This document shows positions 6,874 to 19,963 of a stretch of DNA of 64,000 nucleotides, piece by piece. Made by a program: the position numbers and the translations under genes. Numbering within the stretch: position 1 is the stretch's first letter; each line of letters begins with the position of its first letter. Source of the DNA: a virus. The notes below the pieces were generated by a model. It searched no databases, was not told the DNA's origin, and saw only the letters and a program-made list of their open reading frames with translations. Location: positions 1 through 64,000 of IMG/VR virus record IMGVR_UViG_3300036828_000568. The stretch is one strand, 5' to 3'.

Positions 6874-8589
6874 ATGCCATCTAATGACATATTTAGCACG
6901 TATGCGGCTACGAAGCAAGCAGAAATTGTTGCGAAGCTCATGGAACTCTTTAAAGGCAATGAAAGATTCCACGGTGCAGCCGAGGTAAAAGGCTCAAAAC
7001 ATGATGAAGAAAAGAACAAGTGGCGTCCCGCCGGTATACGATTAGAGCATAGGGGAGCCACAGCCCAGGATTGGGAAAGTCATTTAGCAGGAGGCCGGTT
7101 TCTAGGTTTATCACCACTATTAGATGATGGGAATGTGTGGTTCACATGTATGGATGTAGACAAATTAGGAGATAGTGACAATTATGAGTTTAATTATCCA
7201 GAAGAAATGGATAAAATAAAGAAGTCAGGGTTTCCTCTTGTCGTGTATAAGACAAAGTCCGGGGGCCTGCGCGTCACCATATTCTTTTCAGAGCCGGTAG
7301 AAGCAGAATTAGCTGTACGTCGAATGCAACAGATGGCAGCTCAATTAGGCTATGCAGGATGTGAAATATTCCCCAAGCAATTCAAAGTAAACGATACCAC
7401 CAAAGATCATCCTGCATGGATATTCTTACCGTATGGTCCCACCGCAGGAATGTTTCCTGATCAGTATTGCATGAATGAATCTGGCAATGCGATGGAGCTG
7501 TATGAATCTGTTATTTTTGCAATGCGGAGTCGGATTACGAAACAGCAATTTGCTGATCTATTTGTAGTAGAATTGAAAGCAAGAGCTAATGGGAAGGCTA
7601 ACGGAAAGGCCCGCCCACAAGGCTTGTGGACAGAAGAAAAGGATTACGAAACAACATTGAATACGACATTTAACGATGGACCAATGTGCCTATGGATCAT
7701 AGCTCGTCAGAAATGCACCATGTATCAGCACAACTTCTTGATTACATGTGCGACGTTTTTTATGAGAAAATATACCGATAATTGGGATCATGCTTTAGGG
7801 TGGGTGAACAATAACATATTAGTTCCTCCAGGAGATCGGCGTAAGCTTGCAGAAATAATTGATAGCATGAATAAGAGGGATAAAACCAGACCATACGAAT
7901 ATCAATGTAAGACCGAGCCCATATGCAGTCATTGTTTTGCCAAGGCTTGCAAGAAGCAACCGTATGGAGTAGGTCTAGGAAATGGAATAGATTATAATGA
8001 TCTGGCTATTACTGTCTATAACAGCAAGCCTCAGGTTTTCTTTACGAATGTTGGTGAAGATCGTATATCGTGTAGTGCCGATGAATTATTGAACTTAGGA
8101 AAATATCGTGTTAAATGTTTGGAAAATTCATTATCGTTTCCCGAAACTATGCCTCGAAAAGATTGGGAACGTATTGTCAGAAATAGTTTAGAAAATGCCA
8201 CGATGGTAGATCCACCAGAAATATTGAAAACTGATGCATCAGAATTACGAATACTAGAAACATGGCTCAGCATTCATATTATGAGTGCTGTGCGCGCACG
8301 CGGCGAAGAATTTATGAAAGGCCAATGGGGTGAAGCTGTTCGTATAAAAGAAAGTGAAAAGCGGATATATTTCAAAGCTAAAAAGTTGTTTACGAGTGTA
8401 CGAATACAGCGTGGCATTCAAGAAGAAAAAGAACTTGTTGAATTTGTAGGAAGTAAATGTATAGAACATAAACAGGGACCAGGAGCACGCGAATGGTTCC
8501 GAAATACATACTCTATTGCATTTGACCAATTTAATGATGAAGTATTAGAACATTGGTTTTACCCTGATAAGGAGGAAAAGCGTGAATAG
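6874..8589 (+). CDS. archaeo-eukaryotic-type primase
   Basis: 571 residues. Residues 60-140 carry the hallmarks of the AEP/PrimPol superfamily: a DxD metal motif (MDVDKLGD, Asp94 and Asp96) after a strand, and a second motif KSGGLRVTIFF (128-138), where the common His is replaced by Arg. A Cys cluster near 345-365 (CKTEP, CSHC, AKACKKQPYG) is a zinc finger. It resembles primase domains of TOTE-type and phage systems. It should make primers for phage replication with the polymerase at the right end of the window. It is followed, with overlap, by the NusG-like gene. Confidence 0.65.
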   Translation: MPSNDIFSTYAATKQAEIVAKLMELFKGNERFHGAAEVKGSKHDEEKNKWRPAGIRLEHRGATAQDWESHLAGGRFLGLSPLLDDGNVWFTCMDVDKLGDSDNYEFNYPEEMDKIKKSGFPLVVYKTKSGGLRVTIFFSEPVEAELAVRRMQQMAAQLGYAGCEIFPKQFKVNDTTKDHPAWIFLPYGPTAGMFPDQYCMNESGNAMELYESVIFAMRSRITKQQFADLFVVELKARANGKANGKARPQGLWTEEKDYETTLNTTFNDGPMCLWIIARQKCTMYQHNFLITCATFFMRKYTDNWDHALGWVNNNILVPPGDRRKLAEIIDSMNKRDKTRPYEYQCKTEPICSHCFAKACKKQPYGVGLGNGIDYNDLAITVYNSKPQVFFTNVGEDRISCSADELLNLGKYRVKCLENSLSFPETMPRKDWERIVRNSLENATMVDPPEILKTDASELRILETWLSIHIMSAVRARGEEFMKGQWGEAVRIKESEKRIYFKAKKLFTSVRIQRGIQEEKELVEFVGSKCIEHKQGPGAREWFRNTYSIAFDQFNDEVLEHWFYPDKEEKRE

Positions 8590-15238: not shown

Positions 15239-15515
15239 AAACCTCTACCTCCGGCGGGCGTTCTTCTAGCATCTTTTTGTACTCGGGCATGTGCTGGATA
15301 GCTATGGCATTCAAGCCAGACCCTACCACTATCTGCATTCCACAGCTACGGCACTCGTACAGGTCGGCTTGCCAGAGTTTATAGGATTCCCATTCAGAAG
15401 CAAATAGTTTCCCTGGGATTGCTCTTGGCTTCTTAGGCTTCATCTCCTGTACGCGAATGCCGCATCGCGCCGGTTTGAAGAATGTGCCACATGAAACGCA
15501 GATAGGTTTCAGCAC
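15228..15515 (-). CDS. zinc-ribbon protein
   Basis: 95 residues. CVSCGTFFKPARCG at the N terminus and YECRSCGMQIVVGSG in the middle supply the zinc ligands, joined by WESYKLWQAD. Overlaps both neighbours slightly. Third zinc ribbon in this minus-strand cluster. Confidence 0.65.
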   Translation of the reverse strand: MLKPICVSCGTFFKPARCGIRVQEMKPKKPRAIPGKLFASEWESYKLWQADLYECRSCGMQIVVGSGLNAIAIQHMPEYKKMLEERPPEVEVYDC

Positions 15516-16312
15516 GCCCTCCTCCTTCTGATATAGCGCCAGAACGCGAACGCGCCAAGCAAACCCGGTAATCCGGTGCCGACTATCGGACCTGGGACCG
15601 GGACTTGCTGATTTACCGGCGTAGTCATAATCAGCCCACCTACATCGCCCTGTGCAAACGGAGGGTGCGTTCCACCAGTGAATGCGAACACCTCTGTAAT
15701 CTTGAACTGTTGGCCTGGAAGCATGGCACTCAGTGTTATATCATCGATCCGCAGGCCATTGCTGAACTGGTCCTGGCCCGCGAATGATGATGTACCTCCC
15801 ACAAATGGTCCGCAGAATGGATTGGGTGTATTGCAGACTAGGACCTGGGTAGTCACTGTGTAGCCAGGAGTGCCTACTGCCGGGGTTTCGATCGTGCCCC
15901 ATTTCGTAGGTAGCGTAATCATGGGGTTGCCCGTCAACGTGCCGGTCCACGAGGCGTAGAGGTACGCTGTCCCACCTTGGGGCGGAGCAAACCCATCGTT
16001 AAAGGTAAACTCGAATGTTGGGTTCGGACCTCCTAGACCGCCGCTGAACGTGTTGCCCCCTGGAGGGATAACTCCAGCAAAAATTTGGTCGAACCCGAAA
16101 CCAGTGGGACCAGTTGGTAAAATCGGATTGCCGATAATCTGCACGTTTGGGGCTATGCCTCCAGGCGTCACAGTCCCGGTGTTGGTGCCGAGGATTGCAA
16201 TACCAGTCATGCCAGCGCCAGGATCGAAGTAACCAACAGTCACAGTGTCAGCATTTGCTGCCAGAGGGCTGAGCAGCATGGTCGTAGCTAGTAACACAGA
16301 ACGCATTTTCAT
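15509..16312 (-). CDS. secreted protein with PEP-CTERM-like sorting tail
   Basis: 267 residues from the ATG at 16312; an earlier ATG at 16351 falls inside the promoter. It has a signal peptide (MKMRSVLLATTMLLSPLAA), a beta-rich Gly/Thr/Pro ectodomain, and a C-terminal tripartite tail: PGPIVGTGLPG, a hydrophobic span, then RRRRAC. This layout is that of PEP-CTERM/VPxxG proteins sorted by exosortase-type enzymes in Gram-negative bacteria. In a phage it would place a protein on the infected cell's surface. A paralogous tail is present in 17025-17699. Confidence 0.65.
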   Translation of the reverse strand: MKMRSVLLATTMLLSPLAANADTVTVGYFDPGAGMTGIAILGTNTGTVTPGGIAPNVQIIGNPILPTGPTGFGFDQIFAGVIPPGGNTFSGGLGGPNPTFEFTFNDGFAPPQGGTAYLYASWTGTLTGNPMITLPTKWGTIETPAVGTPGYTVTTQVLVCNTPNPFCGPFVGGTSSFAGQDQFSNGLRIDDITLSAMLPGQQFKITEVFAFTGGTHPPFAQGDVGGLIMTTPVNQQVPVPGPIVGTGLPGLLGAFAFWRYIRRRRAC

Positions 16313-16349
16313 CGTGGGGTTCCTTTTCCTTTGCCCCCATGCCTTTTGC

Positions 16350-16378
16350 ATTTTACTTTACGGAAGTTAGGGATGCAA
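16350..16378 (-). promoter_or_regulatory. GTAAAG-type promoter for the sorting-tail gene
   Basis: Minus strand: TTGCAT, 17 bp ending in CCGTAAAG, TAAAAT. The transcript would start near 16343, leaving a short leader with AAAGGAA before the ATG at 16312. Confidence 0.65.
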
Positions 16379-17024: not shown

Positions 17025-17699
17025 TTACGCTACAGCTTCACGTCGATACCACCATGCGAAACGCTTCTGGCGGAAACGAGCAAAGCCGAGCAACAGAAGA
17101 CCGACTAGTCCCGGCAACCCTGCTCCAACGATTGGGCCAGGAACCGGAGCCGCAACATCAACGCGATAATGCTCGAAGTCGGTGATAGTGCCACCGGTAT
17201 CGCTTATCGTGAAGCTGTTGATGGTTTCGCCGTTGATGGCAGTCAACGTGAAGAAGTTTTGCCCCGGCCCGAGTGGGCCGAAGAGTGAGAGCAGGTCGAA
17301 GTTGACCGGCTTGGTTCCACCACCTGGCTCGTTCGCGGTCACGGCCACTGTCACGTCGCCGGTACCTGTGATTGAGAAGATGTCGGTGGCGGTGGGTAGC
17401 ACCGTTGTCTTGTCTGCGGCAAAGACCTGCACACTCATACTGCCAAAGTCGTTGATCTTGATATCATTGCCTGAAGCTGCTCCGGTGAAACCAGTGCAGG
17501 TAACTAGGCAAGTGAAATCAACGAACCCTGTATGCTGGCCGTTGAAGCTGCCGACGACAAGATTGCTACCGGCGACATGGCTGTCGAAGTTAACGAGATC
17601 ACCTGTACTACCACCTGTGTCAGTGATGATCACGTCCGCCTTTGCAGGCATAACGGCGAGTCCCAAAAGCATGGTCCCCGCCAACAGATACTTTTTCAT
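17025..17699 (-). CDS. secreted protein with PEP-CTERM-like sorting tail
   Basis: 224 residues. Signal peptide MKKYLLAGTMLLGLAVMPAKA, then a beta-sandwich-like ectodomain (SMSVQVFAADKTTVLPTATD ... FFTLTAINGETINSFTI) as in carbohydrate-binding or cell-surface modules. The C-terminal tail has PGPIVGAGLPG, a hydrophobic span and FRQKRFAWWYRR. Same sorting architecture as 15509-16312. Probably a surface-exposed host-modification protein such as receptor masking; the role is inference. Confidence 0.65.
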   Translation of the reverse strand: MKKYLLAGTMLLGLAVMPAKADVIITDTGGSTGDLVNFDSHVAGSNLVVGSFNGQHTGFVDFTCLVTCTGFTGAASGNDIKINDFGSMSVQVFAADKTTVLPTATDIFSITGTGDVTVAVTANEPGGGTKPVNFDLLSLFGPLGPGQNFFTLTAINGETINSFTISDTGGTITDFEHYRVDVAAPVPGPIVGAGLPGLVGLLLLGFARFRQKRFAWWYRREAVA

Positions 17700-17902
17700 G
17701 TGCTAATGTCCTTTCGGTTGTTGCACATTACTGTTGGGGAAAGGTGATACTCGGTTTTTGTTATTTCATACACGACCCTCCTTCTTGGTTGTGTTCGACA
17801 ACCTCCGAAAACCCGGTATCGTTGTACCGGGCTGTAAAGCATTATTGCAGCATGATTTGCCGAACACAAGGCGTATTTTTTGTACAGAAAACTCGCGCGT
17901 CG
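17700..17902. other. gap between the sorting-tail gene and the array
   Basis: No gene supported. CCCGGTA and TACCGGG (about 17812-17831) form a 7-bp hairpin. Read on the minus strand, this hairpin would lie between the array and the start of the 17025-17699 gene. Confidence 0.4.
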
Positions 17903-18866
17903 TGGTACTTTCTTGTAGTATGGTTCGCTCACTTGCTGTGGTACACTCTTAGGTCGCCTGGCTCGCTCACGTCACAATGGTACTCTCGCCACTTTTGGCT
18001 CACTCCCGTTCTATGGTACTCTCCATATAGTTGGTTCGCTCTTCACCTATGGTACACTTGCTTCCGTTGGCTCGCTCTCCTGGTATGGTACTCTCCAGGT
18101 GATTGGCTCGCTCTTCTTCTATGGTACATTCTGCATTCTTGGCTCACTCACGTTTTATGGTACTCTCCGTTGGGATGGCTCACTCGTACAGGATGGTACA
18201 CTCAGTCAGGATGGCTCGCTCACTTTGTTTGGTACTCTCTGTCAATATGGCTCGCTTCATTCGTATGGTACATTCGTGCGTCATGGCTCGCTTACACTTT
18301 ATGGTACTCTTCAGGCTGTTGGCTCACTCCGCGGGTTTGGTACTCTTTGGTCTTGTGGCTCGCTTCCGTTCAATGATACACTCGACCAGGATGGCTCGCT
18401 CACCTCATATGGTACTCTAACCAGTTATGGCTCGCTCTTCGACGATGGTACACTCCCAATACGTGGCTCGCTCTCATGATATGGTACTCTTCGAAGACAT
18501 GGCTCGCTCTTGTGGGCTGGTACACTCGGTCGGGGTGGCTCGCTTCCTATGGTACACTCTATGAACATGGCTCGCTCAAGTTTCCTGGTACTCTTCCCCG
18601 CGCAGGTTCGCTCACCATTTATGGTACTCTTTCCCATAGTGGCTCACTCTTCTCGTATGGTACACTCTGGCATGTTGGTTCGCTCGCAGTCTATGGTACT
18701 CTCTGCATGGGTGGCTCGCTTTCATCATATGGTACACTCAGGTGGGGTGGCTCGCTCTGTCTTATTGGTACACTCGACGCTTATGGCTCGCTCACGCACT
18801 ATGGTACTCTCGTGTCGATTTGGCTCGCTCTCTGACTCTGGTACACTCACGCTTACTGGCTTACCA
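17903..18866. repeat. 54-box alternating 18-bp repeat array
   Basis: Two 10-bp boxes alternate: TGGTAC(T/A)CT(C/T) and TGG(C/T)TC(G/A)CT(C/T). Box starts are 18 bp apart, so the pair repeats every 36 bp. The segments between boxes are 8 bp and all 53 differ. Spacing departs from 18 bp only near 17939-17978 (20 and 19), 18536-18550 (14) and 18802-18821 (19). The last box overlaps the TAA stop of the minus-strand IS110-like gene (18861-18863). Within the boxes nearly all variation is at third positions of a plus-strand frame reading G-S-L and G-T-L, and 15 of 26 segments after the GSL box end in TA, giving Tyr before GTL. In-frame stops (17916, 18477) and the spacing changes break that frame. 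Confidence 0.9.
18099..18835 (+). pseudogene. broken GSL/GTL hexapeptide-repeat coding frame within the array
   Basis: From a GTG at 18099 the frame reads GSLxxYGTLxxx repeats until TGA at 18477. An ATG at 18476 (ATGA) opens a second frame that is out of register for 24 codons, is restored by the 4-bp loss near 18540, and then reads GTL/GSL repeats to 18835. A period of six residues with conserved Gly and Leu is expected of a beta-solenoid. No signal peptide, RBS or clear start is seen, so this is listed as a relic frame, not a working gene. Confidence 0.35.
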
Positions 18867-19676
18867 AGTTCCCCACTCGGGCGGTGGTTCGATCTTATCG
18901 ATGTGCCCGAGGTGGGTTATTGGGAAAGGTTGTGGAGCATCTTTCCCAAACTCTAGCTTGTACCACACCTGATGCAAGTGGGACAAGAATATCTTAGTAG
19001 CGTACCGACGACTACGAGCATCTATCTGTGCAGGAGGCAATTTACCTGTAAGAAGATGCTTGCGTGTTTCCGTAGGTTTCTTATAGCGTGGCAAGAGTTC
19101 CCTAGCAGTCTGTGCGTTGCCGCCGTTTTCGTTGCGCTTGATTTCATATTCCTTGCGCACCTCATAGATCTTGCCGTAATAGCATTTGTCGTTGTTGTGG
19201 AATTTCATAAAGCATTGACCGATATGCCAGCACAATGTCTTAAGACCAGCATTCCAAGGGCGCTTTTCACCCTCGCCCCATTTGTCTGTGGGATCCAACC
19301 CGGCAAAGCGCCAGATATGCCCGGTGGAGGGGCAGACTTTGATGTCGATATGGGCGATTAATCCGGCTGATATTACTGGCCCAATCCCAAAAATGTTCTT
19401 CATACGACGGCCAATTTCTTTGCTGTCGCTATACCGGTCAAGCGCACTACGGAGGTTGCGTTCCAGTACATCGCTCTGTACTGCCAACCAGTTCAGGATT
19501 TCGTGTGGTTCTACCACTTCTTCAGTGGTCATAGACCGGATTTGGTTATCCGACCGTTTGCGCATTTCCTGCATGATGTAATAGCTATCAACAAGGAAGC
19601 GTGCTTCCCTATCTGATAGTGTTACCGCCGCTGTCCGTAAATCACGGGACAGTCGTTCTACAGATTCTATGTCCAT
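18861..19676 (-). CDS. solo IS110-type C-terminal (Transposase_20) domain protein
   Basis: 271 residues from the ATG at 19676, which has AAAGGAG at proper distance. Residues 1-90 are helical and charged, unlike the RuvC-like DEDD domain of IS110 transposases. Residues 95-180 match the IS110/IS116/IS902 C-terminal domain: IFGIGPVISAGLIAHIDI (95-112, HhH-like), HIWRFAGLDP (120-129) and a basic helical part. Where IS110 enzymes carry the Ser-Ser-Gly catalytic stretch this reads KWGEGEKRPWN (132-142), so the nucleophilic serine seems absent. A basic C-terminal extension follows. It is coupled by a one-base overlap to the upstream membrane-protein gene, as an operon member rather than an inserted IS. 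Its stop lies in the repeat array. Confidence 0.65.
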   Translation of the reverse strand: MDIESVERLSRDLRTAAVTLSDREARFLVDSYYIMQEMRKRSDNQIRSMTTEEVVEPHEILNWLAVQSDVLERNLRSALDRYSDSKEIGRRMKNIFGIGPVISAGLIAHIDIKVCPSTGHIWRFAGLDPTDKWGEGEKRPWNAGLKTLCWHIGQCFMKFHNNDKCYYGKIYEVRKEYEIKRNENGGNAQTARELLPRYKKPTETRKHLLTGKLPPAQIDARSRRYATKIFLSHLHQVWYKLEFGKDAPQPFPITHLGHIDKIEPPPEWGTW

Positions 19677-19963
19677 TACCATTCTCCTTTCATTGGAACA
19701 TATACTCCATTACGCTCTACTAATTGAACCGGGTTCATACCCGGTCCGACACTACGTTCTGCGCACGCCCGCACGCGCGGGGGTCGTTTTACCCATAATT
19801 TCCGACCAATGAACGTGCCTAGCTGGATTGTTAACACGCATATCCAAAACAGGCCCACTATGATTTGAGCTGCTAATTGAATTAGTAGCCCGATCAATAT
19901 CAGGGTTTCGCGCGCTAGTAGAACTAGCAGCACTCCCAGTATAAAAAAGAACACCAAGGTCAT
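19676..19963 (-). CDS. small membrane protein
   Basis: 95 residues with two long hydrophobic stretches (MTLVFFFILGVLLVLLA and LILIGLLIQLAAQIIVGLFW plus ICVLTIQLG) followed by a basic tail (RKLWVKRPPRVRAC). Inner-membrane location is likely. Stop overlaps the start of the IS110-like gene (TAATG), linking the two in translation. Confidence 0.6.
   Translation of the reverse strand: MTLVFFFILGVLLVLLARETLILIGLLIQLAAQIIVGLFWICVLTIQLGTFIGRKLWVKRPPRVRACAERSVGPGMNPVQLVERNGVYVPMKGEW

What the first reader, a model, noticed from the sequence alone, without database searches (positions are those of the whole stretch)
17903..18866. 54-box, 18-bp alternating repeat array with all-different 8-bp segments
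Two related 10-bp boxes, TGGTAC(T/A)CT(C/T) and TGG(C/T)TC(G/A)CT(C/T), alternate every 18 bp for nearly 1 kb. By hand I count 54 boxes and 53 intervening segments with no two segments alike; spacing departs from 18 bp at only four steps. Conserved boxes with unique spacers are array-like, but neither CRISPR (8-bp spacers, no cas genes) nor a simple satellite fits. Possible roles are a processed small-RNA array, a binding-site ladder for a phage protein, or a beta-solenoid coding repeat. I know of no described element of this form in phages.
Basis: seen in the sequence. Interest (0 to 1): 0.92.

Follow-up and report, generated by a model that had tools for sequence, protein, structure and literature searches.

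The report
A phage TIGR-TasA guide-RNA array
The ladder of repeats is a TIGR array: 27 tandem 36-nucleotide units that very probably become small guide RNAs for the Tas protein encoded next to it, placing it in a kind of RNA-guided DNA-targeting system first described in 2025, with its targets still unknown.

Summary
It is not an unknown element. Read on the minus strand it is a dual-repeat TIGR array (edge repeat RAGYGARCCA, loop repeat RAGWGTACCA, 8-nt spacers, 36-nt unit), and it begins at the stop codon of a tas gene (18861-19682, minus). That 273-aa protein scores 185.9 bits against NCBI's TIGR-Tas model (cut-off 100). Its predicted fold (pLDDT 90) matches TasH/TasR, then IS110. It has no nuclease domain, so it is TasA-type.

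About 60 relatives beside arrays of the same repeat type were found in viral contigs. In 1,029 of their units, edge position 7 covaries with position 4 of the next edge (A-T 261, G-C 719, G-T 34, A-C 4). This is the inter-edge pair seen in the TasR structure, and it fixes unit and strand. Between phages about 17% diverged, units are either kept (spacers 1.5% changed, boxes 5.2%) or have both spacers new, which suggests selection on the paired guides.

No target exceeded background in the own genome, array-bearing phages or sister phages. RNA processing and DNA binding are inferred from Faure et al. 2025. Verdict: new member of a known kind.

The parts
17892..18866 (-). TIGR array: 27 tigRNA units; 27 edge-type boxes (the first degenerate), 27 loop boxes, plus a 3'-terminal truncated edge (GAG)
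   Evidence: covariation
18857..18866 (-). 5'-truncated/degenerate first edge repeat (TGGTAAGCCA); overlaps the stop codon of tas
17892..17894 (-). 3'-truncated last edge repeat (GAG)
18861..19682 (-). tasA gene, 273 aa, solo Nop-type Tas protein without a nuclease domain
   Evidence: NCBIfam NF052498 TIGR_Tas_endo, 185.9 bits, E 9.2e-55; PDB sequence hits TasR 9mty and TasH 21kl; fold hits TasH/TasR
17808..17831 (-). terminator-like hairpin (CCCGGTA loop TACCGGG then UUUU) downstream of the array
   Evidence: z -2.4; not listed by the consensus scan, U-run of only 4
18546..18549 (-). irregular 4-nt spacer B of unit 9 (TAGG), probably a non-functional unit
19676..19963 (-). 95-aa ORF that looks like a membrane protein, overlapping the tas start; possibly co-transcribed; role unknown
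   Evidence: weak phrog_18173, unknown function

Best explanation
This is a phage-borne TIGR-TasA locus. The minus-strand transcript runs from tasA into the array and probably ends at the hairpin near 17812-17831 (inferred). TasA binds the precursor; the two halves of successive edge repeats pair (shown by covariation) and the RNA is cut within edge repeats into 36-nt tigRNAs: half edge, spacer A, loop, spacer B, half edge (cutting inferred from Faure et al.). A TasA dimer holding one tigRNA would bind a DNA target of about 16 bp, spacer A pairing with one strand and spacer B with the other, and bend or block it without cutting, since no nuclease domain is present (inferred). Spacer pairs are kept under selection and exchanged mostly as whole units between related phages (shown in relatives), so the targets probably matter to phage fitness and change over time. 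No site in the own genome stands out as a target; a competing mobile element or the host is the likeliest target (inferred).
For: NCBIfam TIGR_Tas_endo 185.9 bits vs cut-off 100, and all 41 aligned relatives hit it. TasR and TasH are the best PDB sequence hits. AlphaFold model pLDDT 89.8: the 11 best Foldseek hits are all TasH/TasR, the next 11 IS110. Alternating 10-nt repeats, 8-nt spacers, 36-nt unit, truncated edge at both ends, as published. About 60 relatives with arrays beside tas, 103 of 104 on the same strand, median distance 13 bp. Inter-edge covariation 7x4, z 16.6, and 8x3, z 13.0, against within-array permutations. Purifying selection and unit-wise turnover of spacers. Nothing above background in the own genome.
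Against: No natural target found: nothing above shuffled controls in 2.96 Mb of array-bearing and related phages or 1.23 Mb of sister phages. Box D here reads RAG instead of the UG of TasR. The terminator has only four U. No expression data. One case of a single B spacer changing alone shows that unit swapping is not the only mode.
Confidence: 0.95

Rival explanations
1. Protein-coding repeat: the array encodes a beta-solenoid-like repeat protein on the plus strand (GTLxxxGSLxxx).
For: Period is a multiple of 3; plus-strand ORFs of up to 210 aa run through parts of it.
Against: Non-triplet spacings break the frames and no ORF spans the array. Covariation links halves of neighbouring edge repeats, which a coding model does not predict. 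Arrays lie on the same strand as tas, read as GAG...CCA, in 103 of 104 cases.
Confidence: 0.01
2. A DNA-level binding-site ladder (origin, partition or packaging site) to which a phage protein binds the boxes; the 8-nt segments are mere spacers.
For: Regular 18-bp spacing; Faure et al. report ParB-like genes near some TasA loci.
Against: Retained spacers are more conserved than the boxes (1.5% against 5.2% changed), the reverse of a binding-site ladder. G-U pairs are tolerated and A-C pairs are rare, which points to RNA.
Confidence: 0.02
3. An IS110-type transposase gene with its bridge RNA or terminal repeats.
For: Pfam Transposase_20 at 21.4 bits (cut-off 21.3); PHROG 4285 'transposase'.
Against: IS110 model 25 bits against a cut-off of 140. 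The protein lacks the N-terminal DEDD domain: IS621 aligns only from its residue 130. A long array of unique dual spacers is not an IS110 feature.
Confidence: 0.02

Closest known systems
TIGR-TasA dual-repeat systems (Faure et al. 2025, Science; PMC12045711), e.g. the Flavonifractor plautii FpTIGR
   Same: Solo Nop-domain protein beside an alternating edge/loop array; 36-nt unit; truncated edge repeats at the ends; repeats ending in CCA (as in TasR arrays); inter-edge base pairs.
   Different: 8-nt rather than 9-nt spacers (FpTIGR has 18 nt in all per unit); box D reads RAG; 27 units where 5-15 is the usual number; tailed-phage contig from an uncultivated virus.
TIGR-TasH of Salicola phage CGphi29
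   Same: Best cultured-phage protein match for the window's protein (34% identity over 80 aa); 16 nt of spacer per unit; closest solved fold.
   Different: TasH has an N-terminal HNH nuclease, absent here.
TIGR-TasR (PDB 9mty)
   Same: Nop fold; CCA box C; the edge-edge pairing seen in its structure is recovered here by covariation.
   Different: RuvC nuclease domain; UG box D; 9-nt spacers.
IS110 transposases and box C/D snoRNPs
   Same: Shared Nop-type RNA-binding fold (IS110 shown; snoRNP from the paper).
   Different: No DEDD domain or methyltransferase partner; no bridge RNA; array of many guides.

Membership tests
TIGR-Tas | Effector with a Tas-type Nop domain | tested here: met
   NF052498 at 185.9 bits; Foldseek to TasH/TasR E 6e-7 to 2.5e-5 for the best ten
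TIGR-Tas | Adjacent array of two alternating 8-12-nt repeats with unique spacers of about 9 nt | tested here: met
   10-nt edge and loop repeats, 53 distinct segments, mostly 8 nt
TIGR-Tas | 36-nt unit running edge to edge with paired edge halves | tested here: met
   36-nt period; inter-edge covariation over 1,029 units
TIGR-Tas | 5'- and 3'-truncated edge repeats, then a rho-independent terminator | tested here: inconclusive
   Both truncated edges present; hairpin present but its U-run has only 4 U
TIGR-Tas | Box C/D motifs shared by edge and loop repeats | tested here: met
   Both repeats start RAG and end CCA; loop positions 3 and 8 are G-C in 911 of 1,029; box D differs from the UG of TasR
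TIGR-Tas | Processing into 36-nt tigRNAs | not testable with these tools
   Needs small-RNA sequencing
TIGR-Tas | Both spacers target opposite strands of one DNA site | tested here: inconclusive
   No enrichment of dual-strand sites in the DNA searched; paired conservation and turnover fits joint use
TIGR-Tas, TasH/TasR subtype | N-terminal HNH or RuvC nuclease | tested here: not met
   273 aa; query residue 90 aligns to TasH residue 139 and query residue 37 to TasR residue 124; no nuclease domain in Pfam: TasA-type
IS110 transposase | DEDD catalytic domain and full-length family score | tested here: not met
   25.2 bits vs cut-off 140; aligns only to model positions 168-263
CRISPR-Cas | Single repeat of 25-36 nt with spacers of similar size | tested here: not met
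   Two alternating 10-nt repeats, 8-nt spacers

The most novel reading that the evidence does not exclude
TIGR arrays are actively diversified by an unknown process that replaces spacer pairs in place, inside the array, while selection holds the retained pairs nearly unchanged. This phage family would then have a non-Cas1 route to new dual guides.
Probability: 0.35. Interest if true: 0.85.

Novelty: new member of a known kind. Interest (0 to 1): 0.5.

Why it matters
It removes an apparent unknown: a phage repeat ladder is explained as a guide-RNA array. The locus and its relatives also bear on questions the founding paper left open. Comparative data show spacers kept under selection in pairs and swapped inside arrays, and the inter-edge pairs seen in one TasR structure hold across a whole TasA family. 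The lack of detectable self-targets and of targets in sister phages narrows where the targets may be.

Tried and rejected
Self-targets of the 27 units in the own 75 kb: background, apart from trivial hits of the unit with the 4-nt spacer. Dual-strand target search with 80 to 1,283 unit pairs, both orders, several gaps, 16-nt with mismatches or 12-nt cores, against 1.09 Mb, 2.96 Mb and 1.23 Mb of phage DNA, with shuffled pairings as control: no enrichment. One candidate (unit 14 against L249:1526 just after the terminase gene of a sister phage, one mismatch, site less well matched in the own genome) is at chance level and is not claimed. A weak excess at order rcA_B, gap 2 was not significant in the larger set. 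Plasmids: no Tas match. PADLOC: no match. Host genomes were not searched for targets: no host is known and single-pattern scans of such large collections would return chance hits.

Full report
Observation. On the plus strand, boxes TGGTACWCTY and TGGYTCRCTY alternate from 17903 to 18866. A parser recovers 54 boxes and 53 segments, all 53 different, with four irregular steps of 20, 19, 14 and 19 bp. Outside the array the pattern does not occur in the 75,158-bp virus record, and the reversed pattern gives no hit. A second contig, 17 mismatches away in 6,656 bp, has the same array as far as it reaches, with a single change in a box and none in a spacer. The array is real.

Identification. A minus-strand ORF (18861-19682, 273 aa) ends exactly where the array, read on the same strand, begins. 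Pfam gives Transposase_20 at its cut-off. The best PDB sequence matches are TasR 9mty (E 2e-10) and TasH (E 2e-9). NCBIfam's TIGR-Tas model scores 185.9 bits against a cut-off of 100, while the IS110 model scores 25 against 140. An AlphaFold2 model built on 41 relatives (pLDDT 89.8) matches only TasH and TasR at E below 0.001, followed by IS110 recombinases. There is no HNH or RuvC domain, so the protein is TasA-type.

Anatomy. Read on the minus strand, downstream of tas, the boxes are RAGYGARCCA and RAGWGTACCA. The first is the edge repeat: the array starts with a truncated copy of it, in which the tas stop codon lies, and ends with GAG, another truncated copy. This is the published arrangement: alternating 8-12-nt edge and loop repeats, short spacers, truncated edges at both ends, 36-nt tigRNAs (PMC12045711). 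A hairpin with a short U-run follows. Unit 9 has a 4-nt spacer and is probably dead.

Relatives. A scan for the boxes found at least 119 stretches in viral contigs. About 60 loci carry a Tas relative at 33-60% identity over most of the protein. Of arrays with eight or more boxes in tas-bearing loci, 103 of 104 lie on the tas strand, median distance 13 bp. In prokaryote genome records relatives occur in Acidobacteria, Halomonas, Propionivibrio and others. Some of these loci show arrays of related but different repeats by eye. Among 56 terminase relatives of the window's phage only four show tas in the stretch held (several stretches are too short to tell), so the locus looks accessory.

Unit and strand. 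In 1,029 non-redundant units, position 7 of an edge repeat covaries with position 4 of the NEXT edge: A-T 261, G-C 719, G-T 34, A-C 4. For the two positions within the same edge the figures are A-T 209, G-C 660, G-T 85, A-C 57. Position 8 covaries with the next edge's position 3 (C-G 927, T-A 25). The z-scores against permutations within arrays are 16.6 and 13.0; edge-loop and loop-edge comparisons stay below 2.4. These correspond to the two edge pairs of the TasR structure. The tolerance of G-U over A-C favours the minus strand as the RNA. In the window's own array alone the effect is in the same direction but small.

Evolution. Between arrays of phages about 17% diverged (L126/L061 and L022/L067), 32 units are kept with 8 changes in 525 spacer bases (1.5%) and 33 in 640 box bases (5.2%); 35 aligned units have both spacers new and only 3 keep one. 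Kept was defined as at most two changes per spacer, so the rates are truncated, but the observed rate is far below the flanking divergence. Units lost or gained and units replaced cannot be told apart with certainty, and recent recombination of the arrays could also lower divergence. One pair of near-identical loci (7 mismatches in 7,342 bp) differs by six mismatches inside one 8-nt B spacer. The best reading is that spacers are conserved elements exchanged inside arrays.

Targets. No dual-strand site exceeded shuffled controls in the own genome, in 2.96 Mb of array-bearing and related phages or in 1.23 Mb of sister phages. The target is unknown.

Mechanism and status. Shown here: family, fold, unit, strand, selection on spacers. 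Inferred from Faure et al.: processing, loading as a dimer, tandem two-strand DNA binding. Inferred here: regulation or blocking without cleavage, directed at other mobile DNA or the host. The locus is a new member of TIGR-TasA. I found one primary paper on the subject in the library; whether this contig is in its supplementary table could not be checked.

Noticed in passing
L081:2318-4453: A TasA relative of 711 aa whose gene is interrupted by an intein with a LAGLIDADG domain, inserted near the conserved LKTLCW motif.
   Followed up: partly
L109 and L114 arrays: Near-identical loci in which a single 8-nt spacer is replaced (AAGTAGAG / TGGACACG); the new one is one base from another spacer of the same array (TGGACAAG).
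   Followed up: partly
window 17903-18866, spacer B: About three quarters of this array's B spacers start with T and about three quarters have A next; other arrays have other first-base biases, and B spacers are more purine-rich than A spacers.
   Followed up: partly
L061: One array of about 112 boxes, the longest found; several viral contigs carry three or more separate arrays.
   Followed up: no
window 15509-16351 and 17025-17699 (-): Two secreted-looking proteins with similar C-terminal PVPGPIVGxGLPGL sorting-like tails followed by a hydrophobic stretch and basic residues, beside the array; no confident family match.
   Followed up: no
window 6874-8589 (+): Protein with a TOTE-type archaeo-eukaryotic primase domain match.
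   Followed up: no
G043:C1:33671-34468, G019:C1:51855-52625, G050:C1:19946-20734, G036:C1:53621-54394: Several Tas relatives contain in-frame stops (TAG, TAA or TGA), either decayed genes or recoding.
   Followed up: no
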